Shown here: in pieces, positions 11,638-59,517 of the stretch
Numbering within the stretch: position 1 is the first letter of the stretch
Layout: each line of letters opens with the position of its first letter
Assembly (NCBI GenBank): GCA_903813345.2
Contig: CAIIXF020000809.1
Location: 1 to 64,000 of the forward strand
Source of the DNA: Owenia fusiformis
Taxonomy: Eukaryota; Annelida; Polychaeta; Sabellida; Oweniidae
Direction of reading: 5' to 3'
Length of the DNA: 64,000 nucleotides
Made by a program: the position numbers and the translations under genes
Notes under the pieces: generated by a model
What the model saw: the letters and a program-made list of their open reading frames with translations, nothing else
The model's database searches: none
Told to the model about the DNA's origin: nothing

Positions 11638-11877
11638 GGGACATTTGTCCTCGTGTAGAATTCTGTCCAAATGGTAAAGCTGCTCCTCAACTCTGTCAGG
11701 CTGGTTACTACCTCAACAGCACTGGCAATGATGACGTCTCAGACTGTGAACTCTGCACTGCGGGCTTTTGTTGTGCTGGTAGTGGGAATGATGCCCCAAC
11801 TGGCCTTTGTTCTGCTGTATATTACTATCCTGGGGGTCAAGATGATGATTCCTCTACTGGGTATAACTGCAAGGAAG
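11638..11877 (+). CDS. Exon E, cysteine-rich repeat
   Basis: 240 bases, phase 1-1, acceptor TTATTTCAG, donor GTAAAT. Open: GDICPRVEFCPNGKAAP, LCQAGYYLNSTGNDD, CELCTAGFCCAGSGND, ending GYNCKEG. Copy 2 keeps only the last 63 bases (gap edge). Copy 3 has lost 7 bases after CEL and is frameshifted. Confidence 0.75.
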
Positions 11878-12060
11878 GTAAATGGCTCTTATGAGGAAAC
11901 ATTAATTTTGTAAACTTTTATGATGATCCAATTTGAATGATTTTAAATGGATTTTCATTTACTGCACATATATTTTGACTAGTTATTTGTATAAGGTCAC
12001 TGTTGTTCCACTTGAGTGATGTTCATAATTTCATATATTTATTAACTTGTTATGTTTAAG

Positions 12061-12238
12061 CCACTATTGCCCCACTGGAAGTGACGTTTCTCCCTATCTG
12101 ATGTCCCTCTGGCTCATACCAGGACAAACTGGGCATGGCATACTGCAAGGATTGTCCACAGGGTTTATACAGTGATATTACAATGGCACCAGTCATACTG
12201 TACAATACTTCATATACCATGGCTGAGTTAGTAAGCGA
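12061..12238 (+). pseudogene. Exon F, frameshifted
   Basis: HYCPTGSD opens the block and CPSGSYQDKLGMAYCKDC continues it in another frame; copy 3 is 4 bases shorter here and holds both in one frame, but with a TGA between them. The end is placed at a GTAAGT donor (12239); another GTAAGC lies 8 bases earlier. The acceptor TTTAAG is weak. Confidence 0.5.
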
Positions 12239-12269
12239 GTAAGTAGACTGACTGACTTTTTTTTACAGC

Positions 12270-12325
12270 AGCCCTCAGCTCAGGATTTCATTCTGTGTTT
12301 TAATTAACCAAATATTATCGTCAGT
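12270..12325 (+). repeat. Tail relic of the SINE-like repeat
   Basis: GCCCTCAGCTCAG and TTCTGTGTTTTAATTA resemble the tail of the tRNA-like repeat at 18550-18680 (GCCCTTAGTGCAG, TTCTGTGTTTTAATTA). The head is missing. Present also in copies 2 (about 31030-31085) and 3 (about 55968-56010, inverted). Confidence 0.5.
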
Positions 12326-12582
12326 AAGAACATGCAGTGATTGTGGTTGTGATTGAGTGGCATCCTTGTTATCCACTGATTCAGCCATTGATAGGACATG
12401 AGCAAAAACAAACCATTGCTTGCTTAGGTATGATTACAATGTAAATATTTTTGTCCCTTTCATCTCATTAAATGTGACATTATATGAAATGAAAATAATA
12501 GAGATTTCTTTACAGAATCCCTATAAATTAGAAGAATGACAGTTTTATAGACAGTTACTTTAGTCCTCCTTTTATTTCATAG

Positions 12583-12748
12583 GGTACTACTGTGAAGTAA
12601 ACGCAACATTTGCAACAGAGAATCCCTGTCCTGTAGGGACATTCAACGGCCAAACCCATGCATTGTATACAGTTCTGTCAGCCATGTACAGGAGGAATTT
12701 ACTGTGAGACACAAGGGCTGCCTGAGCCTACAGAGCCATGTGACTCTG
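12583..12748 (+). pseudogene. Exon G, 2-bp deletion
   Basis: GYYCEVNATFATENPCPVGTF is open, then the frame is lost at CATGCATTGTATAC; QPCTGGIYCETQGLPEPTE follows in a second frame to a good GTAAGT donor. Copy 3 has two extra bases at this point and keeps one frame across it, so copies 1 and 2 share a 2-bp deletion. Confidence 0.65.
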
Positions 12749-12908
12749 GTAAGTGATCCTTTACCCCTTGTTATACCTTTAACCTACAATTGAAACTTCT
12801 CTATTATATCTTCCCCAAGTGTATTCTACATACCAGGTATTTTCAGTATTGTAGTCATAAAACAGTTTTTTGCATGAAAAGCAATCTGTTTTTGTTCTTC
12901 TTTATTAA

Positions 12909-13281
12909 AGGCAGAATCAGATCTATAGGGAGTGACAAAATTACAAGCAACGTGCATAATTGGCCTACCAATTTATTCCTTACAATATCAAATACAATAT
13001 CTTCCAAAAGATTCACAATATGTTATAAATTGGTGAAGTTATTAATGATTCAAAGTGCAAAAATGTGTGAAAAATGTTTAAATTCTCCCAAATAATAAGA
13101 ATGGTAACCATTCTTATAGAAAAATAATACATTATTGTAAAAATCTTTCGTTTTCCTTGAATAAAGTATGCACTTTTGTAATTTTTAGAAAATAGACATG
13201 ACAAGGAATGACATGAGCCAAAAATATTCTAAAATTGAAACAATTTTTTGTTTAGCCTGCTTGCTATCTCTGATTCTCTCT
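12909..13281. mobile_element. TTAA MITE (373 bp), inserted only in copy 1
   Basis: Ends AGGCAGAATCAGATCTAT and, inverted, AGAGAGAATCAGAGATAG; TTAA at 12905-12908 and 13282-13285. Copies 2 (near 31670) and 3 (near 55375) show the empty site with a single TTAA. The coordinate offset between copies 1 and 2 changes by 377 bases here, exactly the element plus one TTAA. It is related to 7602-8063. No transposase; piggyBac or Kolobok class by target. Confidence 0.88.
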
Positions 13282-13387
13282 TTAAGTAGAAGCCATCATC
13301 AGGGCCTCATCAACCTCTTCGTAAATATGAGAGGATATTAAAGATAAATGGATAATTTGAATTGTAAACATGTATTTTACAATACAG

Positions 13388-13605
13388 GTTACTTCTGTGC
13401 ATTTGGATCAGATAGTACCATACCCTTCCTGGGAGTAAGTGCTGATGAGTGTCCCACGTGTCATTATTGCCCCCAACAGTTCTCTGCCCCACTAGCTTGT
13501 CCCCCAGGGACATAAAACTGTGCAACTTGGAGGACATCTGTAGGAAACTGTAAGAACTGCACTGGTGGGAATTACTGTCCCAAATGGAATATGACTGGGA
13601 TGCTG
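13388..13605 (+). pseudogene. Exon H, stop codon and 16-bp deletion
   Basis: GYFCAFGSDSTIPFLG, CPTCHYCPQQ and ACPPGT run into an in-frame TAA shared by all three copies, followed by NCATWRTSVGNCKNCTGG and NYCPKWNMTG. Compared with copy 3, 16 bases are missing just before the GTATGT donor, which puts the exon end out of phase. Confidence 0.65.
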
Positions 13606-13831
13606 GTATGTAGCTTGATGCAGTATGAGAGGGGATAGGCTGATTTCAATCAAAACTTTCTCTGTTCATTTTCATGACTTGGGTTTTACAAAAAGAACAT
13701 ACTGTCAGTTACTGCACTTGCCATTAGGAAAACACCCAACATTAGATATTAGACTGATTCATCGTGATTCATTAATGGTACTGTTCAAACATATCATTTT
13801 AGTTTCATTTTATTTTACTTTGTACTTACAG

Positions 13832-13888
13832 TTAACTGCAGTGCCAGTTTCTACTGCCCCCAAGGTGAGATTACTGAGAACCCTCAGC
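13832..13888 (+). pseudogene. Exon I, truncated by deletion
   Basis: NCSASFYCPQGEITENPQ is read from a good acceptor (TACTTACAG), then the sequence jumps at about 13888 to intron sequence (CATATCTACCTATATC). Copies 2 and 3 continue with the rest of the exon. The offset shift shows about 534 bases missing here. Confidence 0.75.
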
Positions 13889-14269
13889 CATATCTACCTA
13901 TATCTACATATCGTCCTATTATTTCCACATTGTTACAATTGCATTTTCGCTGATATTGAGAAATCAGAGGTTGAAATATAGGTCTTCATAACTTTTGAGT
14001 TGTAATTTTTGAAACCTATTTTTGGTATAGGTAATCATGTGTATATGTAGGCCTTGCAGAGCAAAAATCACTGATTAACATTTAAAACACATCTTTTTTA
14101 TGGTTTCTTGTTTTTGAAATATCAAAATAACCCTGTAAACTGAATTTTTATTCCCTTCCATTTTGTAATTGTATATTTATATCGTATATTTACCATTATT
14201 CTGCCCATCTAATTATAAAGAAAATGACTTGTGTTCCATTTTGACTGATAAGGTACTGGATGTTAATTA

Positions 14270-15360
14270 TGTGAAAAATATCATTATCCCATTGAACGAA
14301 GTTCCGAGGGATATAGGGAACCTGTATGTCCATCCGTCTGTCCGTCCATCCCTTTGTCTGGGCAATAACTCATATACTGTTGGCCCGATTTTGTTCATAT
14401 TTTGTACACATATACCCTATGGGGATAGAAGTTATTCTCGAAAGCCAATTTTCAAAATGGGGGCTCATAAAAAATGGCAGCCATTTTAGTGCCAATTTTA
14501 CAGTAATTTATGTTCAATATGTAAAACTGTAATAGCAATATGTTTTAAATAAAAAAAACTATAAAAGACATTATAAAGCTAGAAATGTAGATATTAAAGA
14601 AGCACATGGCACCCATCTTGAAAAATGGTGGCCTTTACTCGTTATTTTATGATTTTTGCTGTAACTCAAAAAGTGGTGGAGTGATTTTGTTCATATTTGG
14701 TATGTGAATACTATAAGCATGGCACACTGTTTAGTGACACTTTTGGTAGAAGGTGGCCATTTTGGAAAATTGTGGTCATTTTGAAAAATGAAAAATGGCT
14801 GCCATTTTAACATGTTTTACTATAACTCGAAAAGTAGTGGAGCGATTTTGTTCATATTTGTTATTATGTGAATACTATAAGCATGGCACACAGTCTAATG
14901 ACACTTTTGGTAGAAGGTGGCCATTTTGAAAAATGGCTGCCATTTTAACATATTTCATACTATAACTCGAAAAGTAGTGAAGCGATTTTGTTTATTTTTG
15001 GTGTGTGAATACTATAAGCATGGCACACTGTCTAATGACACTTTTGGTAGAAGGTGGCCATTTTGAAAAATGGCTGCCATTTTAACGTATTTTACTATAA
15101 CTCGAAAAGTAGTGAAGCAATTTTGTTCATATTTGGGATGTGAATACTGTAAGCATTGCACACTGTCTAATGACACTTTTGGTAGAAGGCAGCCATTTTG
15201 AAAAATGGCCACCATTTTAACTTATTTTACTATAATTCGAAAATTAGTGGAGCGGTTTTTTTCATATTTGGTATGTAAGTACTATAAGCATGGCACACTG
15301 TCTAATGTCACTTTTGGTAGAAGGTGGCCATTTTGAAAAATGGCTGCCATTTTTGCTATA
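14270..15360 (+). repeat. Minisatellite-carrying element in the intron (AAAATGGC type)
   Basis: A left part (CATTATCCCATTGAAC, GAGGGATATAGGGAA) is followed by a GTCC/ATCC microsatellite (about 14327-14352), then from about 14640 tandem units of roughly 135-165 bp with TATAACTCGAAAAGTAG, AGCATGGCACACTGTCTAAT and AAAATGGCTGCCATTTT. About five units. It is present in all copies (33190-34300; inverted 50516-51640), so it predates them. Short ORFs across it are repeat translations. Confidence 0.75.
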
Positions 15361-16159
15361 TACTTTGTTAGTAGATATGCCAGCCATGGCTGTTTGATGG
15401 GATTTGCTACGCTTTGGCGTTGCTGTTGTCTAGTTTCTCATTGGTTTTGAAAATGATAGGGTCTAGTTTTTCAGCATCTGCGAATTTTTGCCATTTATAC
15501 CCCCTGGCTACTTTTATGAAGGGGTACCATGATAATCATCAATAATTTCTGTTATATACCTTCAGCCGCATTCATATTTTGTTGCTATAACAAGTTTGAT
15601 CATTGTCAAGTGGCTGCCGTAACAACACAACTTAAGTGTGAAAAATTGTAAATGTTTTGGATAAATCTACCAGATCTTTAAAAGGTACATGACAAAGGTA
15701 AAAAGGCTATAACAGGGTAATTGATTAAATTCACAGAATGAACATTTTTTGTTACAAATAATGTCAAATCTGCTTTATTTTGTTTGTACTGCAGGCATGA
15801 TGTCATGATTTATGATCTCCTTTGTTAATTACCTACAAAGTATAATAGTAGGAGATCCTCCCATTATTTCCACTAGTTATAACTATTAGTCACATGATCA
15901 AAATTATGTGCCTGATTGGCTATGACAAGTTGGCATTAAATTTTTTTCCCCATTTTGTACTTATAACAATGTGGCACTGGATATCTCCAAAAGAAGATGA
16001 GATCCATTAAAATGGACCTCAGAAATGAATTCCTCGTGAAAAATTGGGAAACATGGTATTCTTATCTCAAAACCTGTAAAAAGTGAGTTATAACAATGTT
16101 GAAATAAAGGGACGATATATATATGACAAGACCTCAACCAACCCATCATGTATTTTAAG
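15361..16159. other. Intron, no gene recognised
   Basis: Intron DNA between the minisatellite element and exon J. It is shared by all copies with small indels (copy 2 has an extra short duplication TTGTTATAACTATT near 34805). I see no coding pattern or further element. Confidence 0.5.
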
Positions 16160-16389
16160 TATAAAAAAATCTGACAAATGGCCCTGTCCTTTTGGCACAT
16201 TTGGAAATGACACAGGATACAACAATACAGCTGTAGCTCCACCTGTACCCTATGTCTCGGGGAATGTACTGTTGGATTGTAAGGCAGACATGGTCTTCAG
16301 GATATTGCCAGGCTTGATATTTCTCCCATTGTTAGTCAGAGATCGCTTCACCTTAAACAAAACCACTGATGCTAACATTTGTCTAGAAG
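16160..16389 (+). pseudogene. Exon J, degenerate
   Basis: WPCPFGTFGNDTGYNNTAVA begins well and the GTAAAG donor at 16390 is good, but the second half does not read as a cysteine repeat in this frame. Copies 2 and 3 have one more G at 'CTCGGGG' and stop after ECTVGL. A piece resembling GYCQAGYF lies in a third frame. The start is a guess at a TTTTAAG acceptor. Confidence 0.45.
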
Positions 16390-17331
16390 GTAAAGATGAT
16401 CGAAATAAATTCTAAAAAATGTAGATATTGATTCTTGAATTCTATCATTACTGAATGAGATGTGAATTTGAAATGTATTGGGTAAAGGTTAGATTAGGTT
16501 CAGGGTGAAAGTTGATCACCAATGAGCAAACATGGTCTTCACAAAAACTGAACCAATTAACCCATTCTGGATTCTGGCAATCTGCAATCTACCAGTTTGA
16601 CAGGAACAACTGGTTTATTATGAGTGATACCCTGAATGAAACATCAACCACTTTACTTGGCATTTAAAGTACCTTTGCTTGATACTTTTGTTAAATGTAA
16701 TAACCTATGTCCACTACTGGATGATATATTTGTTAAATGATCGGTCCATGGAAAGAGTAAAAAGCATGCCTTATATATTGATAACTCCTTACATTAAGGC
16801 TCTTAGGGTTTGGAAGGCACAGACAGTCCTAGTCCCTGAAGTAGAAGGGTATTAGTTGTGCAATGACATCATGCTCCCAATTAGTGTTTTGTTCCTAAAA
16901 CTTTAAGTTGGGATTGGTAGTGAGACCCATGACTTGAGTTATAGCAGATTTATTATTATTTCCTCAAGTCTACTCAGATTTTCTTGTTCTCATCACAGAA
17001 TAGGTCAATCAATTTAACTCAGTTACAACATTTATAACATTTTTTTTACTGTAAATGGGTCTGTGATTGATCATGTGTAAAATTTTATATTAAAATGAAC
17101 AAGTGCTTTTAGATCATAAAAATGAAACAAGGTAAACCATAAAATCTTCAGAATTATTTCCATAAAATGGTTAACTCTAATATTGAGGTTTTATATTCCA
17201 TATACATGTGTACCTTATACATGTGGAAACTGGACATCACATTTCAAGTCAGAAATTGATGCAAAATTGATCCGATGTGTATGTTTGGTAATTCTGCAAG
17301 ATGTCTTACTTCTGAATATTTTTTCTCCAAG
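16390..17331. other. Intron, no gene recognised
   Basis: AT-rich intron conserved in the three copies. An open frame runs into exon K from 17183 in all copies (MRFYIPYTC...), but it lacks the family pattern and the domain starts at a CTCCAAG acceptor, so I treat it as intron. Confidence 0.5.
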
Positions 17332-17613
17332 CTATTACTGTGTACTCAAATCATCAACAGCTACACCCACTGACAACACAACAGGTGTAGAATGTCCCCT
17401 GGAGCATTACTGTCCTGAGGGATCCTCAAGTCCCACTCCCTGTCCCCCAGGCTACTTCCTTGATGCAACTCAACAAGATGAACCAAGAGATTGTGAACTA
17501 TGTACTGGAGGCATGTATTCTACTGGAATGGGGGATGAGACACCTGCTGCAAATTGTGACAATGGCTACTATTGTCCAGCGGGCCAGAATAATTCTGCTC
17601 CATATGAACTCAG
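17332..17613 (+). CDS. Exon K, clean double cysteine repeat
   Basis: 282 bases, phase 2 to phase 2, acceptor TTCTCCAAG, donor GTGAGT. Open: YYCVLKSSTATPTDN, CPLEHYCPEGSSSPTPCPPG, CELCTGGMYSTGMGDE, CDNGYYCPAGQNNSAPYE. Copy 2 differs by P to L (HYCLEG). Copy 3 lacks 12 bases in frame (DEPR). The frame survives in all three copies, unlike most of the gene. Confidence 0.8.
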
Positions 17614-17978
17614 GTGAGTGAAGAAATATCCTTAATTTCGTCCCTTTTTCACAAAATATCCACCAACATATATTGTTCCTTAAAAATATAAAGGGGGCAA
17701 AAAGTATGACACAGGACAATGAAAAAACCCAGTGTCTCTAACTGATTTTCTTTTGAAATTGATTCTTGAAGACAAACTGTTGTTATGTTTCTTCCAAGCA
17801 CAATTTAACACTGATTTTAGTCACGTGCTTTGTTATACATACTGTACTGTACTTGATTTTGAATTTTAATCCTACATGTATTTACTTTCAATTATACTTC
17901 TGTACTTTGTCTTGTAAAATAATGTGTATCTTCATTTAAATATGAGTGGTAAAATACAATACACAACTGTAATTCCAG

Positions 17979-18132
17979 ATATCCAATTGGCCACTACTAT
18001 CCCTCAAGCACTGAGGCCCCAATACATTGTGAGAATGGGACTTACCAGGATCAGGAGACCCAACGGACATGCCCAGCTGGCTATTTAACAATGAATTCCT
18101 TGCCCTATTGGAACATTCTAACAACCGCACGG
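17979..18132 (+). pseudogene. Exon L, 1-bp insertion
   Basis: Phase 2 start after AATTCCAG: YPIGHYYPSSTEAP, CENGTYQDQETQRTCPAGYL. Near the end CATTCTAACAACC has one base more than copy 3 (CATTCAACAACC), giving 154 rather than 153 bases and losing the phase-2 exit. Copy 2 has the same extra base. The donor GTAAGTG is good. Confidence 0.65.
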
Positions 18133-18381
18133 GTAAGTGTTTTGAATATGTCAAAATATTTCTAGTATCTTGATGATCTTCCAGATTAGCTTGTCACACA
18201 AGATTTCTATTGAGTATTTTGTCTCTAGTAATTGTATTACATGAATATTTAGGCTGCAATTGGAAATACTTAACCGGGCCATTCATTCATTTTCTGCTAT
18301 TTGGAGATTCTGATATTACTGATATTTATCTCATATTTCCAGATTTTAGATCCAGTTTACTAAATTCTGTTTGCCTTGTAG

Positions 18382-18512
18382 GACTCTCTGATAACAGCCA
18401 ATATAGTCCCTGTCCAGGTGGCTTTTACTGCCCTACTCTTGGTATGGTCACTCCAGCACTGCTGCAGTCTACTTCTGTAAGAACCTAGCTGAGACTGCCT
18501 CACCAAATCAAG
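18382..18512 (+). pseudogene. Exon M, 1-bp frameshift shared by all copies
   Basis: LSDNSQYSPCPGGFYCPTLG is read from GCCTTGTAG. After GMVTP the family pattern (VYFCKNLAETASPNQG) continues in another frame to the GTATGC donor. At 131 bases the exon is one short of phase 1-1. Copies 2 and 3 are the same, so the lesion is ancestral to the three. Confidence 0.6.
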
Positions 18513-18549
18513 GTATGCATTAGCATTGATTTTAAGTTTGAGTTTTTTG

Positions 18550-18680
18550 TTGACACCCGGAAAGTGAGGTGTCATGGGTTCAATCCCAACTAGGGAGGAC
18601 TGAATTTTTCACATCGGCCCTTAGTGCAGTATTTAATTCTGTGTTTTAATTAGCCAATATAGTAATATGAATTAAAGAAA
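18550..18680 (+). repeat. tRNA-derived SINE-like fragment
   Basis: GGTTCAATCC at 18577-18586 fits a polymerase III B box, within AGTGAGGTGTCATG and CCAACTAGGG; the tail is TTCTGTGTTTTAATTAGCC. No A box is visible in the short head, so it is truncated. Copies at about 37494-37624 and, inverted, 46800-46925. Confidence 0.5.
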
Positions 18681-18737
18681 TATGTTTTACTTAATGAATC
18701 CATTTTTCATGTTAATTTTGACACATGTCATCTACAG

Positions 18738-18920
18738 GTACTAATGCCAATATCAATGATGTGGGTCATTACTGTATATAGGGCACCACTGACCCTGCCC
18801 TGTGCCCCAAGGGAACTTACAACAATGAAACAGGTCTAGAGGCTGAGAGTGACGGAGTACAATGCTGGTAGTTATTGTGATCAAGTGGCACTGCGACAAC
18901 GCACTGGACTGCTCTGAAGA
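18738..18920 (+). pseudogene. Exon N, private nonsense mutation
   Basis: TNANINDVGHYCI is followed by TAG (18779-18781) where copies 2 and 3 have GAG. Then TTDPALCPKGTYNNETGLE, and AGSYCDQVALRQRTGL in a second frame. Acceptor CATCTACAG and donor GTATGT are good. Copy 3 lacks 13 bases (AATGATGTGGGTC). Confidence 0.6.
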
Positions 18921-19003
18921 GTATGTTTAATTTACATCATGCAGTTTATTAAGTTACTTAATGGTAAATCTGAAAATGTTATTTTCAAAACAACCTTACA
19001 GTA

Positions 19004-19420
19004 CATTGGCGTCGGAAGGGGGAGGGTGTGGGGGGCGACTGCCCTAGATTTGAAATTGAGCCTAGAAGTGCCTAGAGCTAATAAAAGTCAAAGTGTAAAA
19101 TAATAATGACAGAAATTATACTATGTCATTATCTAGTCTACATCAAGCATAGATCTCATTTCTCATATTATATGGAATTCTAATATACTATGTATAGTTT
19201 CTCAGGAACCCATACAGTATGTAAATACTTTGAAGAATGAGTGCAAAATGTTTATTTTATTTTAGTAAAAGTCAAGTTAAGTTTTCTAAAAACACATTTT
19301 TCTTGTTTATGGGTTATATACCCTGGATCTCCCAGATTGTGCTGTGTGGCACGCTTCACGCATGACTCATCCATACCCAAAAGTCGCCCCCTCCCTTGGC
19401 AAATCCTTCTGACGCCCCTG
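19004..19420. mobile_element. Inverted-repeat MITE (417 bp), CAKKGGCGTC ends
   Basis: Ends CATTGGCGTCGGAAGG and, inverted, CAGGGGCGTCAGAAGG, with G-rich then GGGGGCGAC on both arms. Flanks CAGTA and TAGTA may be an imperfect 5-bp target duplication. Ends of this kind occur in hAT-like MITEs; the family is unproven. No transposase. Copy 2 at 37948-38364; copy 3 contains only part, because its contig stops inside it. Confidence 0.6.
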
Positions 19421-19671
19421 TAGTATAATCCTCTAAAGTTTGCCAATTTTTTGGTGTTGAAAAAGTTATAAAATAAACTAATTTTAACTAAGAATTTGTC
19501 TTTGATTCATGAAGTCTTAAGTCCTTTTCAATTTATGATGTAAATATCCAGTAAATGTTGATAGTTCTGCATATTGTTTTGAATTTTATTCATTCATGTT
19601 CAAAGATTTAAACCATTCTAAATCCCAATGAAATACTGTTTGTTATAAAATGCCATATGTATTAATTGTAG

Positions 19672-19853
19672 ATACTACTGTGAGACAGCATCAGAGAATG
19701 CTACCTCCATTGTATGCCCTGTGGAGCACAAATGCGTAAAAGGATCCAATGAACCAGAGGCATGCCCTGCAGAAACCTATAGTAATAGTGTAGGCTACCC
19801 AAATGTAACTATGTGTAGACCATGTGATGCTGGAATGTACTACAGTGAAACAG
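19672..19853 (+). CDS. Exon O, clean cysteine repeat
   Basis: 182 bases, phase 2 in, phase 1 out; acceptor TTAATTGTAG, donor GTTACA. Open: YYCETASENATSIVCPVE, KCVKGSNEPEACPAETYS, CRPCDAGMYYSETG. Copy 2 is open too (38616-38797). Copy 3 does not reach it. Confidence 0.75.
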
Positions 19854-19928
19854 GTTACAATGTATACTTAATTTCTCAAATTGACACCAGTCATTAAATG
19901 TCATCCTAAATTACTGATATATATATTT

Positions 19929-20112
19929 AAGAAAGACCCTTTTTGTCAAAATGATATGCCATCCTGAATTATTTGTACAGTCATTTGTATGAGAAATATT
20001 TATACTTATATGTATATTTAAGAAAGACCCTTTTTGTCAAAATGATATGTCATCCTGAATTATTTGTACAGTCATTTGTATTAGAAATATATAGAAATAC
20101 ATAAATAAGATG
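19929..20112 (+). repeat. Two-copy 91-bp tandem repeat
   Basis: AAGAAAGACCCTTTTTGTC, then CATCCTGAATTATTTG and ACAGTCATTTGTAT, starts at 19929 and again at 20020. It lies in the intron between exons O and P and is the same in copy 2 (about 38873-39056). Confidence 0.8.
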
Positions 20113-20149
20113 AAAAAATACTCTTAAATTGTTATTTCATAAATTTCAG

Positions 20150-20364
20150 GAATGTCAGCACCAACTGGAAAGTATGACACTTGATTTTATTGCCCTGGTG
20201 AGAATTCAGTGGTGACCCCTGTTACAATACTCTCTGTACTTGATTGTCCACAAAGGACCCCCAGCCCAGTGCCATATGATCTTAAGGCACCTATATAAAT
20301 CTCACTCAGGCATCTGTATGTCTTGAATGCCCTGTTGGTTTCTACTGTGAGGAGGTTGTTGCAG
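20150..20364 (+). pseudogene. Exon P, stops and frameshift
   Basis: MSAPTGKYDT, then TGA, then FYCPGENSVVTP; a second stop (TAA) follows LKAPI, and SVCLECPVGFYCEEVVAG lies in another frame before the GTAATG donor. Copy 2 shares both stops. Confidence 0.6.
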
Positions 20365-20706
20365 GTAATGATGACTGCATTTAAATTCATCCTATGTTTT
20401 ACAATGAATTTTATGTGACACATTGACACAACGAAACTAAAAGTGGTGATATATTATTAGATATTTATAGAATTCATTTATTCAATATTTTTGATGTAGT
20501 GAATGTGATTTTTGAGTTGGCTATTAGGTGTAATAAGCCTGATTTTGATGAATGTAGTTTTGCAGTAATTGCCAAACTGAATAATGATGAATTTATGAAA
20601 TAGTGGTATATTAAAAATAAAGGTGGGCTACTTATGTAGTAATTAGAATTTAGATAATTGAGGTTAAACATCAAATTATTATTGTACCTGTTCTTATATA
20701 TTCTAG

Positions 20707-20837
20707 GAACCTGTTTCACAGTCAGACCTGAGTATGTCAGCTTTGGTTACATTGCTCTGGGGATATTTGACTTTGGCTGTAATGATGCTCTTACACATTT
20801 ACTTTACCATGTCTGGCTCCTGCCATTGAGGGGATGA
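20707..20837 (+). CDS. Exon Q, possible terminal exon
   Basis: From acceptor TATATTCTAG the phase-1 frame reads TCFTVRPEYVSFGYIALG, FDFGCNDALTHLLYHVW and ends at TGA 20835-20837. No cysteine repeat follows and no donor is obvious, so this may be the natural C terminus. It is the same in copy 2. Confidence 0.45.
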
Positions 20838-46925: not shown

Positions 46926-46962
46926 CAAAAAACTCAAACTTAAAATCAATGCTAATGCATAC

Positions 46963-50515: not shown

Positions 50516-51640
50516 TATATAGCAAAAATGGCAGCCATTTTTCAAAATGGCCACCTTCTACCAAAAGTGACATTAGACAGTGTGCCATGCTTATAGTACT
50601 CACATACCAAAAATGAACAAAATTGCTCCACTAATTTTCGAATTATAGTAAAATAAGTTAAAATGGTGGCCATTTTTCAAAATGGCTGCCTTCTACCAAA
50701 AGTGTCATTAGACAGTGTGCCATGCTTACAGTATTCACATCCCAAATATGAACAAAATTGCTCCACTACTTTTGGAGTTATAGTAAAATACGTTAAAATG
50801 TTTGCCATTTTTCAAAATGGCCACCTTCTACCAAAAGTGTCATTAGACAGTGTGCCATGCTTATAGTATTCACATACCAAAAATGAACAAAATCGCTTCA
50901 CTACTTTTCGAGTTATAGTATGAAATATGTTAAAATGGCAGCCATTTTTCAAAATGGCAACCTTCTACCAAAAGTGTCATTAGACTGTGTGCCATGCTTA
51001 TAGTATTCACATAATAACAAATATGAACAAAATCGCTCCACTACTTTTCGAGTTATAGTAAAACATGTTAAAATGGCAGCCATTTCTCATTTTTCAAAAT
51101 GGCCACAATTTTCCAAAATGGCCACCTTCTACCAAAAGTGTCACTAAACAGTGTGCCATGCTTATAGTATTCACATACCAAATATGAACAAAACCACTCC
51201 ACCACTTTTTGAGTTACAGCAAAAATCGTAAAATAACGAGTAAAGGCCACCATTTTTCAAGATGGGTGCCATGTGCTTCTTAAATATCTATATTTCTAGC
51301 TTTATTAATGTCTTTTATAATTTTTTTACATTTAAAACATATTGCTATTACAGTTTTACATATTGGACATAAATTACTGTAAAATCGGCACTAAAATGGC
51401 TGCCATTTTTTATAAGCGCCCATTTTGAAAATTGGCTTTTGAGCAGAACTTCTATCCCCATAGGGTATATGTGTACAAAATATGAACAAAATCGGGCCAA
51501 CAGTATATGAGTTATTGCCCGGACAAAGGGATGGACGGACAGACGTACATACGGACGGACGGATGGACAGACGCGTTCCCTATATCCCTCGGAACTTCGT
51601 TCAATGGGATAATGATATTTTTCACATAATTAACATCCAG
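50516..51640 (-). repeat. Minisatellite-carrying element (copy 3)
   Basis: Inverted counterpart of 14270-15360 with tandem units (50516-51260) and a GGAC microsatellite (51528-51570). Divergence between units is clearer here. Confidence 0.75.
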
Positions 51641-51789
51641 TACCTTATCAGTCAAAATGGAACACGAGTCATTTTCTTTATAATTAGATGGGCAGAATAA
51701 TGGTAAATATATGATATAAATATACAATAACAAAATGGAAGGGAATAAAAATTCAGTTTACAGGGTTATTTTGATATTTCAAAAAAAAA

Positions 51790-53483
51790 AATTAGTACCG
51801 TGGGTACTGGGCTCACATGGTGACAGAAAAAAACGGATATAATTTTTTGCTGATTTTTTGTAACAAAATTATTTAAAGCCACTTGCCACTATTTTGGACT
51901 GACGGAGAGACAGATGGACAAATCGATGTTAAGTAAAATTGCTGAAAAAAACGGATATAATTTTTTTTCAATTATTTGGAACAAAATTATTTCATACAAC
52001 TACTCTTTACAGTGACATGGCTTTTTGCAATGCAAGACACCTGAAATTATTTGTAAAGCTAGAAAATGGGCCAAAATTGAATTTCGCGAGACAAAAATGA
52101 CGACCATTTTGAAATCAGGCAAGCTTTTGAACCAGGAGTCAAAGGGGAGTTTTTTTGTATTTATGTTGAACAAAAATAACGTGAAACTGGAATCCTATCG
52201 ACAGAGGTTTTAAGTAAATGGTCCAAAAGAGGATTTCGCGAGACAGATGAACAATGCAAATCAATGTTAACTAAAATGGCTGAAAAAAAACAGATATAAT
52301 ATTTTGCCGATTTTTTGTAACAAAATTATTTCATACAACTACTCTTTACAGTGACATGGCTTTTTACAATGCAGGACAGCTGAAATTATTTGTAAAGCTA
52401 GGAAATGGGCAAAAAGTGAATTTCGCGAAACAAGAATGGCGACCATTTTGAAAATAGGCGAGCTTTTGAACCAAGAGTCATAGGAGAGTTTTTTGTATTG
52501 ATGTTGAACAAAATTAACTTAAAACGAGAATCCTATCGACAGAGGGTTTAAGGTAAATGGTCCAAAAGTGGATTTTGCGAGACAGATAGACAAATCAATA
52601 TTAACTAAAATGGCTGAAAATAAAAAAATGGATATAATTTTTCGCTGATTTCTCGTAACAAAATTATTTCATACATCTTCTCTTTACATTGACATGGATT
52701 TTTACAATGTAGGACACTTGAAATTATTTGTAAAGCTAGGAAATGGGTCAAAAGTGAATTTCGCGAGACAAAAATGGCGGCCATTTTGAAAATAGGCGAG
52801 CTTTTGAACCAGGAGTCATAGGGGAGTTTTCTGTATTGATGTTGAACAGAAATATTTTAAAACAGGAATCCTATGGACAGAGGTTTTAAAACGTACCACT
52901 GTTATTGACGAAAAGTGGATTTCGCGAGTCAGATAGACAAATCAATGTTAACTAAAATGGCTGAAAATAAAAAAATGCATATAATTTTTCGCTGATTTTT
53001 TGTAACAATATTATAACATATATCTACCCTTTACATTGACATGGATTTCTACATTGTAGGACACCTGAAATTATTTGTAAAGCTAGGAAATGGGTCAAAA
53101 GTGAATTTCGCGAGACAAAAGTGACGGCCATTTTGAAAATAGGCGAGCTTTTGAACCAGGAGTCATAGGGGAGTTTTCTGTATTGATCTTGAACAGAAAT
53201 AATTTAAAACAGGAATCCTATCGACAGAGGTTTTAAAGGAAATGGGTCAAAAGTGAATTTCGCGAGACAAAAGTGACGGCCATTTTGAAAATAGGCGAGC
53301 TTTTGAACCAGGAGTCATAGGGGGGTTTTCTGTATTGATCTTGAACAGAAATAACTTAAAACAGGAATCTTATCGACAGAGGTTTTAAAACGTGCCACTA
53401 TTGTTGACGGACGGACGGACAGACGGATGGACAGACAGACGGACAAGTGAGTGATTGCAAAAGCTCACCATGTGAGCTAACAA
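51790..53483. mobile_element. 1.7-kb insertion with tandem core and ACGG microsatellite, copy 3 only
   Basis: GGGCTCACATGGTGA (about 51810-51823) and TCACCATGTGAGCTAACAAG (53466-53485) are inverted ends. The core has units of about 340-350 bp (GAATTTCGCGAGACAAAAAT, GGCGAGCTTTTGAACCAG, GAGTCATAGGGGAG) plus a shorter last unit, then GACGGACGGACAGACGG (about 53406-53440). Copies 1 and 2 have the empty site in a T-run (TTCTTGTTTTTGAAAT) without an obvious target duplication. The end-tandem-microsatellite-end layout is that of pearl-like minisatellite elements of molluscs, which have been linked to Helentrons. Confidence 0.75.
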
Positions 53484-53673
53484 GAAACCATAAAAAAGAT
53501 GTGTTTTAAATGTTAATCAGTGATTTTTGCTCTGCAAGGCCTACATATACACATGATTACCTATACCAAAAATAGGTTTCAAAAATTACAACTCAAAAGT
53601 TATGAAGACCTATATTTCAACCTCTGATTTCTCAATATCAGCAAAAATGCAATTGTAACAATGTGGAAAAATA

Positions 53674-54150
53674 CCGGATTTTCTCGCATATAAGCCCTGG
53701 GCGTATAACTGAAAGAAGGGGTAATTTCGTCTGTTATTTTACCTCTTATTTTTCGCCCATGGGCGTATAAGTGTACTACTTTCGAATTTTAGCCCAGTGG
53801 GCGTAAAGGTGAGAAGAGCTGATGAATACAAAGACTACCGTACCTACTGTTGTAGTCCTACCACATGTTTTGTAAGAATTATAAAGGAAATGTCACCTAC
53901 AACCTTGGACTTAATGTTGAAACAAAGTAACAACGGAACGATCCACCACTGCCACTTACGGCACAGCGTTGAACTTAATGTTGAAACAAAGTAACGACAG
54001 AACGATCTGGCAGTGAAAAATACTCTTGAATTTATTGAAAAAATCAATAAATAGTCATTTTTTATAGGCCCATGGGCGTATAAGCGTACTACATTCGATT
54101 TTTGGCCCATGGGCCTAAATTTAGTGGGGTGTATATGCGAGAAAATCCAG
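53674..54150. mobile_element. TA-flanked MITE (477 bp), copy 3 only
   Basis: Ends CCGGATTTTCTCGCATATA and, inverted, CTGGATTTTCTCGCATATAC; TA at 53672-53673 and 54151-54152. Copies 1 and 2 have the empty site (GTCCTATTATTTCC). Tc1/mariner/pogo-type target. It contains repeated CCCATGGGCGTATAAG; a short ORF (53797-53994) is not convincing. Confidence 0.85.
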
Positions 54151-54562
54151 TAATAGGACGATATGTAGATATAGGTAGATATGTAGATATAGGTGGTGCA
54201 TAGTAATTTTTGCTTCTTTGTGTTTTGATTAGAAGTATGGCATGCTTTTTACTCATGAAGATTAAAATGTAAAGAATATTTTTTAGTTTTTCATCATAAA
54301 ATGACAGTAGCTTGACACCTTGTGTAATATAAAGATTTGAATCATCAGTTATTTTAAACGTAAGTAAAATTCTTAAATTATTGGGGAGGTTTCACATAAA
54401 GGATATGGCTAAAACGCATCTGCAACCCTATCTCATTCCGATCGAACAGCTATGCCTAAATCTGGTGAATTAAGTAAAAATGTGCGAAACCTCTCTAATA
54501 GAAATGCTATTTTAACAATTATTTAGTTGAGACTTGATTATGCAAGCTAAGTTCTCACTCAC

Positions 54563-54811
54563 CATGGGAACAGTGGTATCCAGCTGGACATGTCACTGTT
54601 TCATTAATCACCACAGCACCATTACTGTTATCACAATAGTAACCTGCAGGACATAACTTTCACTCACTCTGACCAATGTTGCCTTGGTATCCGTCACTGT
54701 CGTAGATGAATGAGTCATATGTGCCCTCAGGACAGTAGTAGCCTATGGGGCATGGCTGAGGGTTCTCAGTGATCTCACCTTGGGGGCAGTAGAAACTGGC
54801 ACTGCAGTTAA
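54563..54811 (-). CDS. Exon I, full length (copy 3)
   Basis: 249 bases, phase 1-1, same modules as 32217-32465 and the same 24-base GTGAGT...CTGCAG segment with TGA (54644-54667). Confidence 0.65.
54644..54667 (-). other. Candidate 24-nt intron or remnant (copy 3)
   Basis: Same 24 bases as 32361-32384 on the minus strand, unchanged although copy 3 is otherwise diverged. Confidence 0.4.
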
Positions 54812-55037
54812 CTGTAAGTACAAAGTAAAATAAAATGAAATTAAAATGATATGTTTGAACAGTACCATTTATGAATCACAATGAATCAGTCTAATATCTA
54901 ATGTTGGGTGTTTTCCTAATGGCAAGTGCAGTAACTGACAGTATGTTCTTTTTGTAAAACCCAAGTCATGAAAATGACCAGAGAAAGTTTTGATTGAAAT
55001 CAGCCTATCCCCTCTCATACTGCATCAAGCTACATAC

Positions 55038-55271
55038 CAGCATCCCAGGGTGAACCCACTGCAGTCATATTCTATTTGGGACAGTAATTCCCACCAGTGC
55101 AGTTCTGACAGTTTCCTACAGATGTCCTCCTAGTTGCACAGTTTTATGTCCCTGGGGGACAAGCTAGTGGGGCAGAGAACTGTTGGGGGCAATAATGACC
55201 TGTGGGACACTCATCAGCACTTGCTCCAAGGAAGGGTATGGTAATTTCTGATCCAAATGCACAGAAGTAAC
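55038..55271 (-). pseudogene. Exon H, full length but with stops (copy 3)
   Basis: 234 bases, correct phase 1-1, including the 16 bases missing from copies 1 and 2. It has the common TAA after PPGT and a private TAG (CPK-stop) where the others have TGG. Confidence 0.65.
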
Positions 55272-55531
55272 CTGTATTGTAAAATACTGTTTACAATTCA
55301 AATTATCCATTTATCTTTAATATCCTCTCATATTTACGAAGAGGTTGATGAGGCCCTGATGATGGTTTCTACTTAATAAAGAAGAACAAAAACAGATTGC
55401 TTTTCATGCAAAAAGCTGTTTTTTAACTACAATACCGAAAATACCTGGTATGTAGAATACACTTGGGGAATATATAATAGAGAAGTTTCAATTATAGGTT
55501 AAAGGTTAACAAGGGGTAAAGGATCACTTAC

Positions 55532-55699
55532 CAGGGTCACATGGCTCTGTAAGCTCAGGCAGCCCTTATGTCTCACAGTAAATTCCTCCTGTACATGGCT
55601 GACAGAACTGTATACCATATGCATGGATTTGGCCGTTGAATGTCCCTACAGGACAGGGATTCTCTGTTGCAAATGTTGCGCTTACTTCACAGAAGTACC
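55532..55699 (-). pseudogene. Exon G, frame kept but TAA (copy 3)
   Basis: 168 bases, phase 1-1, with the two bases lost in copies 1 and 2. FCQPCTGGIYCET then meets TAA (CAA in the other copies). Confidence 0.65.
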
Positions 55700-56010
55700 C
55701 TATGAAATAAAAGGACTAAAGTAACTGTCCATAAAACTGTCATTCTTCTAATTTATAGTGATTCTGTAAAGAAATCTCTATTATTTTCATTTCATATAAT
55801 GTCACATTTAATGACATGAAAGGGACAAAAATATTTACATTGTAATTATACCTAAGCAAGCAATGGTTTGTTTTTGCTCATGTCCTATCAATGACTAAAT
55901 CAGTGGACAACAAGGATGTCACTCAATCACAACCACAATCACTGCATGTTCTTACTGACGATAATATTTGGTTAAGTAAAACACAGAATGAAATCCTGAG
56001 CTGAGGGCTG

Positions 56011-57335
56011 CTAACAAGGCACAGACATGAACAACATCGTACCTAAAACACAGCATTGTGGTCTTGTTGACCAAGAAAGCAAGATGGCCGCAGAAAAGTT
56101 AATCAGCTCTAGAACTTATCACTGTGTAACATATGTAAAAAATTTGAACGGTTTGGCTGGAAACCTGTAGACAAGCCTCGATAGACAAGATTTTAGGATG
56201 GAAAATCTAAAAACTTAACATTTACCCAGAATGCCCAAAAACTAATCAGTTCTAAACTTTCATGCGTAGAAACATCCCTGAAAATTTCAGATGAATCCCT
56301 CAAATGGTTTGGCTGGAAACCTGTAGACAAGTCTTGAAAGTGAAGATTTTAGGACGGAAAATCCAAAATGGCCACCTTAAAATTTACCCAGAATGCCCAA
56401 AAACCAATCAGTTCTTGACGTTGATATGTAGAAACATCCCTGAAAATTTCAGATGAATCCCTCAAATGGTTTGGCTAAAAATCTGTAGACAAGTCTTGAA
56501 ATTGAAGATTTTAGGACGGAAAATCCAAAATGGCCACCTTAAAATTTACTCACAATGGCCAAAAACTAATCAGTTCTTGACATTGATACGTAGAAACATC
56601 CCTGAAAATTTCAGATGAATCCCTCAAATGGTTTGGCTGGAATCCTGTAGGCAAGTCTTGAAAGTGAAGATTTTAGGACAGAAAATCCAAAATGGCCACC
56701 TTAAAATTTACCCAGAATGCCCAAAAACCAATCAGTTCTGACGTTGAGATGTAGAAACATCCCTGAAAATTTCAGATGAATCCCTCAAATGGTTTGGCTG
56801 AAAATCTGTAGACAAGTCTTGAGAGTGAAGATTTTAGGACAGAAAATCCAAAATGGCCACCTTAAAATTTAACCAGAATGCCCAAAAACTAATAAGTTCT
56901 TGATGTTGATATGTAGAAACATCCCTGAAAATTTCAGATGAATCCCTCAAAAGGTTTGGCTGGAAACCTGTAGACAAGTCTTGAAAGTAAAGATTTTAGG
57001 ACGGAAAATCCAAAATGGCCACCTTAAAATTTACCCAGAATGCCCAAAAACTAATCAGTTCTTGACGTTGATATGTAGAAACATCCCTGAAAATTTCAGA
57101 TGAACCCCTCAAATGGTTTGGCTGAAAACCTGTAGACAAGTCTTGAAAGTGAAGATTTTAGGATGGAAAATCCAAAATGGCCACCTTAAAATTTACCCAG
57201 AATGCCCAAAAACTAATCAGTTCTTGACGTTGATATGTAGAAACATTCCTGAAAATTTCAGATGAATCCCTCAAATTGTTTGGCTGGAAACCTGTAGACA
57301 AGCTGAAAAGTGAGACGCCTCTTGTTAGGTACGAT
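56011..57335. mobile_element. Insertion with 162-bp tandem array, copy 3 only
   Basis: GAAACATCCCTGAAAATTTC starts at 56269, 56431, 56593, 56754, 56916, 57078 and 57240: seven units of 162 (once 161) bp, plus a degenerate first unit. Ends: CTAACAAGGCAC with ATCGTACC on the left; CTTGTTAGGTACGAT on the right, so CTAACAAG and ATCGTACC are inverted. Copies 1 and 2 read straight through at the poly-T before CAGCAGCCC (12260, 31020). Confidence 0.75.
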
Positions 57336-57358
57336 AAAAAGTCAGTCAGTCTACTTAC

Positions 57359-57535
57359 TCGTTTACTAACTCAGCCATGGGGCAATATGAAGTATTGTAG
57401 AGTATGATTGGTGCCATTGTAATATCACTGTATAAATCCTGTGGACAATCCTTGCAGTATGCCACGCCCAGTTTGTCTTGGTATGAGCCAGAGGGACATC
57501 AGATAGGAGCTTCACTTCCAGTGGGGCAATAGTGA
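57359..57535 (-). pseudogene. Exon F (copy 3)
   Basis: HYCPTGSEAPI, TGA, CPSGSYQDKLGVAYCKDC in a single frame; donor GTAAGT. It shows that copies 1 and 2 have four extra bases. Confidence 0.5.
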
Positions 57536-57721
57536 CTTAAACATAACAAGTTAATAAATATATGAAATTATGAACATCACTCAAGTGGAACAACAGTGAC
57601 CTTATACAAATAACAAGTCAAAATATATGTGCAGTAAATAAAAATCCATTTGAAATCAGTTGAGAAATTGGATCATCATAAAAGTTTACAAAATCAATGT
57701 TTCCTCATAAGAGCCATTTAC

Positions 57722-57954
57722 CTTCCTTGCAGTTATACCCAGTAGAGGAATCATCATCTTGACCCCCAGGATAGAATTATACAGCAGAACAAAGGCCAAT
57801 TGGGGCATCATTCCCACTACCAGCACAACAAAAGCCCGCAGTTCACAGTCTGAGACGTCATCATTGCCAGTGCTGTTGAGGTAGTAACCAGCCTGACAGA
57901 GTTGAGGAGCAGCTGTACCATTTGGACAGAATTCTTCACGAGGACAAATTTCCC
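57722..57954 (-). pseudogene. Exon E, 7-bp deletion (copy 3)
   Basis: GEICPREEFCPNGTAAP and LCQAGYYLNSTGNDD are intact; after CEL seven bases are missing and the frame is lost. Confidence 0.65.
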
Positions 57955-58165
57955 CTGAAATAATAAATTATACAAACTTGAGTAATACTGTTGAATTGCA
58001 TGAATGTTCTATAAATCATATTGTGCAGCAGGTACTAGCAGATTGCAAGTGTAAAATAATAATAAAAGAAATTGTCAATACTAAAACAACTTCAATAATG
58101 ATTTACTTATTGAAACATTATCATTAATTTGGAAGAACACTGAAGTGGTGAAAAAGGTTATTTTA

Positions 58166-58810
58166 CAGGTTGTCAAATGGCGTTGTGTCCCCCCCCCATC
58201 CACAGCATAAAGTAGGAGAAGTACACATACATACTATATACCTTTGGAAAGAGCATGTAATTGTTGTTAAAGTGTGAAAAGATGAAAATTTATGACAGAA
58301 AATAAGACACATTTTGAACTAATTTTTGAAAGTGAGTATGATCACCTTGGGCAGCGGAAAATGGCTGTGACTAGCTGGACATGAGTTATAAAAGCCATGG
58401 AGAAAAGCAATGTCTTTCTCAAGAGATCTCAATACTTTTTAGAGGTCCTTGTGCAGGGTGGCTTTGGAATATCTGTTCTCTGTAGCTTCAATAAGGTGTT
58501 CTGTTTTATCCATTAATATGGACCTCATATGATCTGCAGTATTTAAGGGAGTTGTTGCTTGTGTATATGTCAATGCCGAAAAAGTCTATGCAGGAATTCG
58601 TCAAAATCATTAAAAAGAGCACCATACTAGTATACTTCAGTTGTGAAAAAATATGTGAAAAAATATGTAGCAATACCTGACCTTGGTCATCTGCTGTTTA
58701 TTTTATCACGCATTGAATGCTATTTCCAATAACATACAGAATGTATAGGTACTTCTAGTTTATGCTGTGCAAGGGGGAGGGGGGGGGGCACAATGCCATT
58801 TGACAACCTG
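58166..58810. mobile_element. TA-flanked inverted-repeat element (copy 3)
   Basis: Counterpart of 10759-11426, 645 bp, TA at 58164-58165 and 58811-58812. The central open stretch has a TAA. Confidence 0.7.
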
Positions 58811-58893
58811 TATAACTGTCATGCAATTGGTCTCACTAGTTTTTATTACATTTTTATTTTTCTGTGACATAAACATTTTTGCTTAATTCATAC

Positions 58894-59116
58894 CAGTGGT
58901 ACCATCATTACTGGGGTTAGGCATAGTAACTGATGATGTGCAGTAATATCCTCCGAAACACTCACCAGACATTACTCCTAAATAATAAGTAGCACAATGG
59001 ATCCTTCAGGGCAGTATTCTCTGGTCACGCAGTTGCAGACCTACCAGTATAATAATAAACTGCTTTACATAGGCCAGTTGAAGTTGTCAGGCCTGTTTAT
59101 TCACAGTACTGTCCAC
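58894..59116 (-). pseudogene. Exon D, broken (copy 3)
   Basis: Same TAA after GGQYCE. CFGGYYCTSSVTMPNPSN is intact near the donor, unlike copy 1. Confidence 0.6.
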
Positions 59117-59352
59117 CTGAATGAAAATGGAGTAATATGATCACAGAAACGCAAGACAGAAGAGGAAGAATGAGAAAATATCCAATTGAGATTACAATTT
59201 ATATGATAATAATATTTGTATCACTGTTTCCTCCTCAAAATATCTCTACTGTCAATTTTATTATTTTTTAAACTGCACGTTCATAGTTTTTACAAGATGA
59301 GTTTTCCCAGACTCAATAAAATACATAATTTAATAAAAGAAACAGTACCAAC

Positions 59353-59517
59353 CTGGACAATCTAAGCAGTCTTCAACTTTAGTACGATGAGATATGTTGT
59401 TGTATTTCCCAGCTACACATGGGTACTGGTTCCATGCCTCAGTGCCATCTGGACAGTAGTGTCCACTGAGACAATCATAGTTAGCGTAGTTCACATCACC
59501 ACTAGGGCAGTAGTAAC
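59353..59517 (-). CDS. Exon C, clean (copy 3)
   Basis: 165 bases, phase 1-1: GYYCPSGDVNY, CLSGHYCPDGTEAWNQYPC, AGKYNNISH, DCLDCPG. Open. Confidence 0.8.

What the first reader, a model, noticed from the sequence alone, without database searches (positions are those of the whole stretch)
11638..59517. Three copies in direct-direct-inverted order joined only by 500-N gaps
Copy 2 is exactly 15,000 bases long, and every junction between copies is a gap of exactly 500 N. Fixed gaps are what some Hi-C scaffolders insert, and round contig lengths suggest cutting during misjoin correction. Alleles placed in tandem would mimic a triplication with an inversion.
Basis: partly seen in the sequence, partly recalled or inferred. 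Interest (0 to 1): 0.7.

Follow-up and report, generated by a model that had tools for sequence, protein, structure and literature searches.

The report
Redundant contigs mis-scaffolded beside each other
What looks like a gene region copied three times, the last copy flipped, is most likely redundant versions of one region of an unidentified animal genome, assembled as separate pieces and laid in a row by scaffolding software; the region holds a dead gene and several transposon insertions that differ between the copies.

Summary
Three gaps of exactly 500 N separate four contigs. Contig 2 is exactly 15,000 bases. Contig 2 (direct) and contig 3 (inverted, 13,797 bases) align, apart from discrete insertions and deletions, over their whole length and to all four ends, inside contig 1 (11815-26900 and 9707-19402). 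No junction between copies exists as sequence, so order and inversion are only the scaffolder's statement. I judge the triplication an artefact of uncollapsed, redundant contigs.

'Alleles' needs amending. The copies are three haplotypes: 0.51% (1-2), 2.29% (1-3) and 2.20% (2-3) substitutions, with different transposon insertions. One diploid individual cannot supply three alleles of one locus. Contigs 1 and 2 look like an allele pair. Contig 3 is evenly 2.2% away: a homeologue or hybrid haplotype, another individual's haplotype, or a real second locus.

The copied cysteine-rich gene is an unprocessed pseudogene in every copy, with four stop codons shared by every copy covering them, plus private lesions. 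Structural differences are mostly small DNA-transposon insertions, including Helentron-type ones; a 2,044-residue Helentron-like ORF lies upstream. Read depth is needed to decide what contig 3 is.

The parts
9707..26900 (+). Contig 1 segment to which contigs 2 and 3 align ('copy 1')
30076..30575 (.). 500-N scaffold gap
30576..45575 (+). Contig 2 ('copy 2'), exactly 15,000 bases, aligned end to end to 11815-26900; 73 of 14,394 aligned bases substituted
45576..46075 (.). 500-N scaffold gap
46076..59872 (-). Contig 3 ('copy 3'), 13,797 bases, aligned end to end, inverted, to 9707-19402; 211 of 9,220 aligned bases substituted
59873..60372 (.). 500-N scaffold gap
12909..13281 (+). 373-bp insertion found in contig 1 only, flanked by TTAA (piggyBac-like MITE, inferred); a 72% partial relative lies at 7626-8049
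   Evidence: its terminal repeat alone does not stand out (11 of 200 shuffles as good)
22620..22927 (+). 308-bp insertion present in contig 1, absent from contig 2 (contig 3 does not reach here); 12-bp inverted termini, flank repeat TTACA (hAT-like MITE, inferred)
32277..32808 (+). 532-bp stretch with the 3' part of an exon, present in contig 2 and in contig 3 (54191-54751), deleted in contig 1 at 13891
56013..57335 (-). I1: 1,323-bp insertion in contig 3 only; about seven 162-bp central repeats, 11-bp inverted repeats (terminal at the 5' end, subterminal at the 3' end), T-run target (HINE-like)
   Evidence: contigs 1 and 2 have 5-6 bases at the site that contig 3 lacks
53674..54150 (-). I2: 477-bp insertion in contig 3 only; 17-bp near-terminal inverted repeats (MITE, inferred)
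51786..53478 (-). I3: 1,693-bp insertion in contig 3 only; four 338-bp central repeats, 13-bp subterminal inverted repeats, 3' hairpin, T-rich target (HINE)
47673..48063 (-). I4: 391-bp insertion in contig 3 only; 12-bp near-terminal inverted repeats (MITE, inferred)
8619..19894 (+). Exons of a cysteine-rich-repeat gene, unprocessed pseudogene, in contig 1 (limits approximate); counterparts in contigs 2 and 3

Best explanation
The direct-direct-inverted triplication is an assembly artefact. The assembler produced redundant contigs for one sequence from different haplotypes. A Hi-C scaffolder (3D-DNA or one with the same gap convention) then placed them side by side with 500-N gaps, in an order and orientation for which the sequence holds no evidence. 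Contig 2 appears to have been cut at a rounded coordinate. Contigs 1 and 2 are most simply the two alleles of one locus (0.5% apart). Contig 3 is a third haplotype about 2.2% away, so it needs polyploidy or hybridity, more than one individual in the library, or a second locus (the first rival below, which overlaps with this one). Shown here: gap lengths, contig lengths, end-to-end containment, divergence, insertion differences, pseudogene lesions. Inferred: the software, the cutting, and the origin of each haplotype.
For: Three of 3 gaps are exactly 500 N and 1 of the 2 complete contigs is exactly 15,000. Four of 4 ends of contigs 2 and 3 align to the interior of contig 1 up to the end, with no foreign flank and no duplication breakpoint in the window. 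The copies differ by substitutions, short indels, one 532-bp deletion and presence or absence of six short mobile-element-like insertions, as haplotypes do. Between contigs 1 and 2 there are 73 substitutions against 13 short indels, 6 of them of one base, which does not look like long-read sequencing noise. Two published 3D-DNA assemblies report 500 Ns between contigs; 15,000 is that program's default length cut-off. False duplications, among them separate haplotype contigs wrongly placed in one assembly, are described as one of the commonest assembly errors (PMC8081667, passages). The gene is dead in each copy, so there is no sign of selection for extra copies.
Against: Three distinct haplotypes do not fit a plain diploid. 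Contig 3 is evenly diverged, with variance/mean 0.81 to contig 1 over 18 blocks of 500 bases and 1.05 to contig 2 over 15 blocks. In my simple coalescent simulation evenness of 1.3 or less is rare for two alleles once rho/theta is 0.1 or more (0 of 495, 0 of 710 and 0.7% of 885 runs kept), but possible at low recombination (28% of 262 at 0.01, 7% of 341 at 0.03) (runs kept out of 1,000 each because their mean divergence resembled the observed one). This leaves room for a real second locus. A real duplication longer than these contigs would also make them look contained. Contig 3 is below the 15 kb default, so default 3D-DNA would not have placed it as an input contig.
Confidence: 0.8

Rival explanations
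1. Mixed case (overlaps with the best explanation, which leaves it open): contigs 1 and 2 are alleles of one locus, and contig 3 is one copy of a genuine second locus (segmental or inverted duplication) that split off before those alleles did.
For: Two-tier divergence, 0.51% against 2.2-2.3%; at 7,138 sites aligned in all three copies 145 differences are private to contig 3, 19 to contig 1, 13 to contig 2 and none differ in all three; evenness of the contig 3 divergence; contig 3 alone carries four insertions.
Against: No duplication breakpoint: contig 3 stays homologous to contig 1 to both its ends. A diverged haplotype from a hybrid, polyploid or second individual would give the same numbers.
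Confidence: 0.3
2. Simple diploid haplotigs: all redundancy is two alleles, with copies 1 and 2 derived from one haplotype and differing only through errors or haplotype switching during polishing.
For: At all 32 sites where contigs 1 and 2 differ in the three-way alignment of 7,138 sites, contig 3 agrees with one of them, as switching to the other allele would give.
Against: Contigs 1 and 2 differ structurally: 373-bp and 308-bp insertions in contig 1, a 532-bp deletion in contig 1, short indels of up to 43 bases. Contig 2 has neither the four contig 3 insertions nor the two contig 1 ones, which makes three structural haplotypes. Sites with three different bases are expected to be rare anyway.
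Confidence: 0.07
3. A genuine direct-direct-inverted triplication on one chromosome, with the gaps merely unresolved.
For: Order in the scaffold: something put these pieces together.
Against: No sequenced junction, all limits of homology of contigs 2 and 3 coincide with contig ends, rounded contig length; Hi-C links cannot separate homologous copies from neighbours (general knowledge).
Confidence: 0.08

Closest known systems
Heterotype false duplication / uncollapsed haplotypes in genome assemblies (PMC8081667, passages seen; PMC8178825 and PMC10548655, start of abstract in a listing)
   Same: Separate haplotype contigs retained and placed in one assembly, mimicking segmental duplication; contained contigs joined by scaffold gaps.
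   Different: Three haplotypes instead of the two a diploid gives; one of them 2.2% away and the other pair 0.5%.
Helentron-associated interspersed elements (HINE, pearl-like) of invertebrates (PMC4067079, PMC7492417, passages seen)
   Same: I3 and I1: inverted repeats near both ends, central tandem repeats of 338 and 162 bp, insertion into T-runs; I3 has the 3' hairpin.
   Different: I1 has no 3' hairpin of 5 or more perfect pairs by my scan; the 3' inverted repeats lie 23-25 bases from the 3' end, not 38-60 as reported for mite elements.

Membership tests
Haplotypic (heterotype) false duplication | Extra contigs are wholly homologous to another contig, with no unique flank | tested here: met
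   Contigs 2 and 3 align, discrete insertions apart, over their full length and to all four ends inside contig 1
Haplotypic (heterotype) false duplication | Copies joined only by scaffold gaps, no sequenced junction | tested here: met
   3 of 3 gaps are 500 N
Haplotypic (heterotype) false duplication | Number of haplotypes no larger than the ploidy (two for a diploid) | tested here: inconclusive
   Three distinct haplotypes over 11815-19402; ploidy and number of individuals unknown
Haplotypic (heterotype) false duplication | Reduced read depth on each copy | not testable with these tools
   no reads held; no genome held for this window
3D-DNA scaffold | 500-N gaps between contigs | tested here: met
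   literature passages. Other programs use 500 N too (recalled: SALSA2)
3D-DNA scaffold | Placed contigs not shorter than the default 15 kb cut-off | tested here: not met
   contig 3 is 13,797 bases; default from PMC6952475. Pieces cut after input, or a changed threshold, escape this, so I do not assert which program was used
HINE (non-autonomous Helentron), element I3 | Subterminal inverted repeats, 3' palindrome, T-rich target | tested here: met
   13-bp repeats, 0 of 200 shuffles as good; 6-bp hairpin 8 bases from the end; empty site in contigs 1 and 2 within T-rich sequence; definition from PMC4067079 passages
HINE (non-autonomous Helentron), element I1 | Subterminal inverted repeats, 3' palindrome, T-rich target | tested here: inconclusive
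   11-bp repeats (0 of 200 shuffles as good) and T-run target met; perfect hairpin of 5 or more pairs not found in the last 50 bases
Helentron (autonomous) | Rep/helicase protein with C-terminal endonuclease domain | tested here: met
   ORF 2-6136: Helitron_like_N 4.3e-32, PIF1 4.7e-22, Exo_endo_phos 3e-10, in that order; termini not tested, the 5' end lies outside the window

The most novel reading that the evidence does not exclude
The three haplotypes record a 2+1 genome: a triploid, hybrid or clonal animal with two closely related homologues (0.5% apart) and one divergent homologue (2.2%) that no longer recombine, so that the locus shows single-age divergence and haplotype-private transposon insertions. 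The assembler resolved all three and the scaffolder laid them out in a row.
Probability: 0.15. Interest if true: 0.4.

Novelty: not a real feature. Interest (0 to 1): 0.15.

Why it matters
Read at face value, the scaffold would give a false triplication with inversion, spurious extra gene copies and a false copy-number or structural-variant call. It also marks the assembly as unpurged here. The three-haplotype pattern gives the owners of the data a quick check on ploidy, hybrid origin or sample pooling, and the empty sites in the other copies give direct evidence for Helentron-type and MITE-like insertions younger than the split of the haplotypes.

Tried and rejected
Whole-genome context: none is held for this window, so read depth, k-mer copy number and other copies could not be looked for. 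ARAGORN and Rfam (gathering thresholds): nothing. Pfam on nine exon-like ORFs of the cysteine-rich gene plus one contig 4 ORF: only sub-threshold hits (Ephrin_rec_like E=0.02, 15.1 bits against a cut-off of 23.1; DUF7495; Zn_ribbon_11), so the gene family is not named. Search for the organism by an exact 28-base piece of the contig 4 repeat: 0 matches in viral contigs and 0 in genome contigs; the organism stays unidentified. That it is an animal is inferred from intron-exon structure and from the Helentron and HINE elements; a mollusc is only a guess. A paper search for six terms together (triploid, androgenesis, haplotypes, bivalve, genome assembly, Hi-C) gave 0 papers. Passages on 3D-DNA settings in PMC8389630 and PMC10336049 concern changed settings and were not used; the grid on which that program cuts contigs was not found in print (search), so 'cut on a grid' is inference.

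Considered and rejected: stop-codon recoding in the cysteine-rich gene (stops of all three kinds, a frameshift and a partial exon deletion); sequencing error as the source of the contig 1-2 differences; mosaic ancestry of contig 2, since the 532-bp stretch it shares with contig 3 is simply a deletion private to contig 1.

Caveats: variance/mean for contigs 1-2 is 1.41 over 28 blocks of 500 bases, inside the simulated Poisson range 0.55-1.58, but 1.78 over 14 blocks of 1,000, for which I ran no null. The coalescent simulation is a plain constant-size model of my own. The counts use only the colinear HSPs of at least 190 bases (300 for contigs 1-2) and leave out the large insertions and deletions.
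Full report
OBSERVATION. The window holds three runs of N, each exactly 500 long, and four contigs: 1-30075 (entering from the left), 30576-45575 (15,000 bases), 46076-59872 (13,797) and 60373-64000 (leaving on the right). Contig 2 aligns directly to contig 1 from 11815 to 26900 and contig 3 aligns inverted to contig 1 from 9707 to 19402, each in order over its full length apart from discrete insertions and deletions. Contigs 2 and 3 match the interior of contig 1 up to their first and last bases: four of four ends. Contig 1 goes on for 3,175 bases after the homology to contig 2 ends. Contig 4 is not a copy, though its first 91 bases resemble the core repeat of insertion I1 at 67-72%.

WHAT THE GEOMETRY SAYS. 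A duplication leaves breakpoints, places where homology stops inside a sequenced molecule. For contigs 2 and 3 none is seen: their homology stops only where they stop. The order direct-direct-inverted and the adjacency rest wholly on the scaffolder. The 500-N gaps agree with two published assemblies made with 3D-DNA, which report 500 Ns between contigs (PMC10421919 and PMC10320752, passages seen); other Hi-C scaffolders use 500 too (recalled). A given contig length has a chance of about 1 in 1,000 of being a multiple of 1,000 (two complete contigs are in view), so a length of exactly 15,000 suggests cutting on a grid. 15,000 is also 3D-DNA's default input cut-off (PMC6952475; PMC6719893; passages seen). 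Against a simple default run, contig 3 is shorter than that cut-off, so I do not name the program with certainty.

THREE HAPLOTYPES, NOT TWO. Substitutions and short indels within the aligned blocks: contigs 1-2, 73 of 14,394 aligned bases (0.51%), 13 indels, 6 of one base; contigs 1-3, 211 of 9,220 (2.29%), 46 indels; contigs 2-3, 170 of 7,734 (2.20%), 31 indels. At 7,138 sites aligned in all three, 145 differences are private to contig 3, 19 to contig 1, 13 to contig 2, and none differ in all three. Transitions to transversions are 1.15 to 1.39. That substitutions far outnumber one-base indels argues against long-read error. Structurally, contig 1 alone has a 373-bp TTAA-flanked insertion (12909-13281) and a 532-bp deletion that removes the 3' part of an exon. 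Contig 1 has and contig 2 lacks a 308-bp insertion (22620-22927; contig 3 does not reach it). Contig 3 alone has four insertions of 1,323, 477, 1,693 and 391 bp. Three structural and sequence haplotypes over the same stretch cannot all be alleles of one locus in one diploid animal. The finding's 'alleles placed in tandem' therefore needs a third source: polyploidy or hybridity, pooled individuals, or a second locus.

EVENNESS OF DIVERGENCE. In blocks of 500 aligned bases the variance/mean of differences is 0.81 for contigs 1-3 (18 blocks), 1.05 for 2-3 (15 blocks) and 1.41 for 1-2 (28 blocks). Simulated Poisson ranges are 0.45-1.77 for 18 blocks of mean 11.4 and 0.55-1.58 for 28 blocks of mean 2.54. 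With 1,000-base blocks contigs 1-2 give 1.78 over 14 blocks, for which no null was run. In a plain two-allele coalescent with mean divergence 2.2%, evenness of 1.3 or less was seen in 28% of 262 runs at rho/theta 0.01, 7% of 341 at 0.03, 0 of 495 at 0.1, 0 of 710 at 0.3 and 0.7% of 885 at 1; each number is of the runs, out of 1,000, whose mean was near the observed one. Contig 3 thus looks like a copy that split from the other two at one time and did not recombine with them: a homeologue, a haplotype from a diverged lineage, or a paralogue; at very low recombination it could still be an ordinary allele. For contigs 1-2, two alleles drawn with mean divergence 0.5% gave evenness of 1.35 or less in 7% to 74% of runs kept, depending on recombination, so an ordinary allele pair at 0.5% is not excluded. 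Two alleles from a population of mean 2.2% had divergence as low as 0.56% in 730 of 4,000 runs at rho/theta 0.01, falling to 9 of 1,500 at 1. Simple demographic assumptions limit this argument.

WHAT IS IN THE COPIED REGION. Exons of a cysteine-rich-repeat protein lie on the + strand of contig 1 from about 8619 to 19894, with counterparts in step in the other two contigs. In none of the three is it intact. In-frame stops shared by every copy that covers the site lie at 13513 (TAA, 3 of 3), 12099 (TGA, 3 of 3), 10482 (TAA, 2 of 2) and at 32366 (TGA, 2 of 2, contigs 2 and 3; deleted in contig 1). One more, 16315 (TGA), is in contigs 1 and 2 and not 3, but lies close to the end of readable homology, so it may not be in an exon. 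Private lesions are a TAG at 18779 in contig 1, and in contig 3 a TAG at 55074, a TAA at 57779 and a small frameshifting deletion. The exons are spread over more than 10 kb with intervening non-coding sequence, so this is an unprocessed pseudogene, and the shared stops suggest that it was dead before the three copies separated. No Pfam family reached its threshold for the nine ORFs of it that were tested. There is no sign that extra copies of it are under selection.

THE STRUCTURAL DIFFERENCES ARE MOSTLY TRANSPOSONS. Five of the six insertions have inverted repeats near their ends that none of 200 shuffles matched; the sixth (373 bp) does not stand out on this test (11 of 200) but sits in a TTAA target and has a 72% partial relative at 7626-8049. 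Names of transposon classes for the short ones are inferred from recalled features. I3 fits the Helentron-associated HINE plan: 13-bp subterminal inverted repeats, four 338-bp central repeats, a 3' hairpin 8 bases from its end and a T-rich target. I1 fits except for the hairpin, and its site is not a perfect empty site, as contigs 1 and 2 have 5-6 bases there that contig 3 lacks (definition from PMC4067079 and bivalve examples from PMC7492417, passages seen). An open 2,044-residue reading frame at 2-6136 in contig 1, outside the copied part, has Helitron_like_N, PIF1 helicase and a C-terminal endonuclease domain, the Helentron arrangement. I1 and I3 found no match in the part of contig 1 downstream of it, and its 5' end lies outside the window, so nothing here links it to them.

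VERDICT. The triplication with inversion is an artefact of uncollapsed redundancy plus scaffolding (0.8). That the redundancy is plain diploid allelism is unlikely (0.07 as a rival). Whether contig 3 is a homeologue, another individual's haplotype or a real second locus (0.3) cannot be settled without reads. False duplications of this sort are well described (PMC8081667, passages; PMC8178825 and PMC10548655, start of abstract in the listing), so the finding is of low interest in itself.

Noticed in passing
window 2-6136 (+): An open reading frame of 2,044 residues (still open at the window's left edge) with Helitron_like_N, DUF6570, PIF1 helicase and C-terminal Exo_endo_phos domains, a Helentron-type protein without a stop in the part seen; it also carries an 18-residue repeat coded by the 54-bp tandem repeats at 466-799.
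   Followed up: partly
window 61868-62918: An element of roughly 1,050 bp with long inverted termini (beginning CAGGGTGTTCCAAAAGTAACAGGAC) flanked by TA, beside the contig 4 tandem array; looks like a Tc1/mariner-type non-autonomous element (read by eye, not tested).
   Followed up: no
window 60516-61869: Tandem array of a roughly 218-bp unit near the start of contig 4; the contig's first 91 bases (60373-60463) resemble the 162-bp core repeat of the contig 3 insertion I1 at 67-72%.
   Followed up: partly
window 29801-30070: Contig 1 ends just after a two-copy 133-bp tandem repeat, a usual sort of place for an assembler to stop.
   Followed up: no
window 14789-15353, 33725-34289, 50525-51089: A 135-bp tandem array of 4.1 copies, 565 bases long in each of the three contigs, so its length did not change over the 2.2% divergence.
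   Followed up: no
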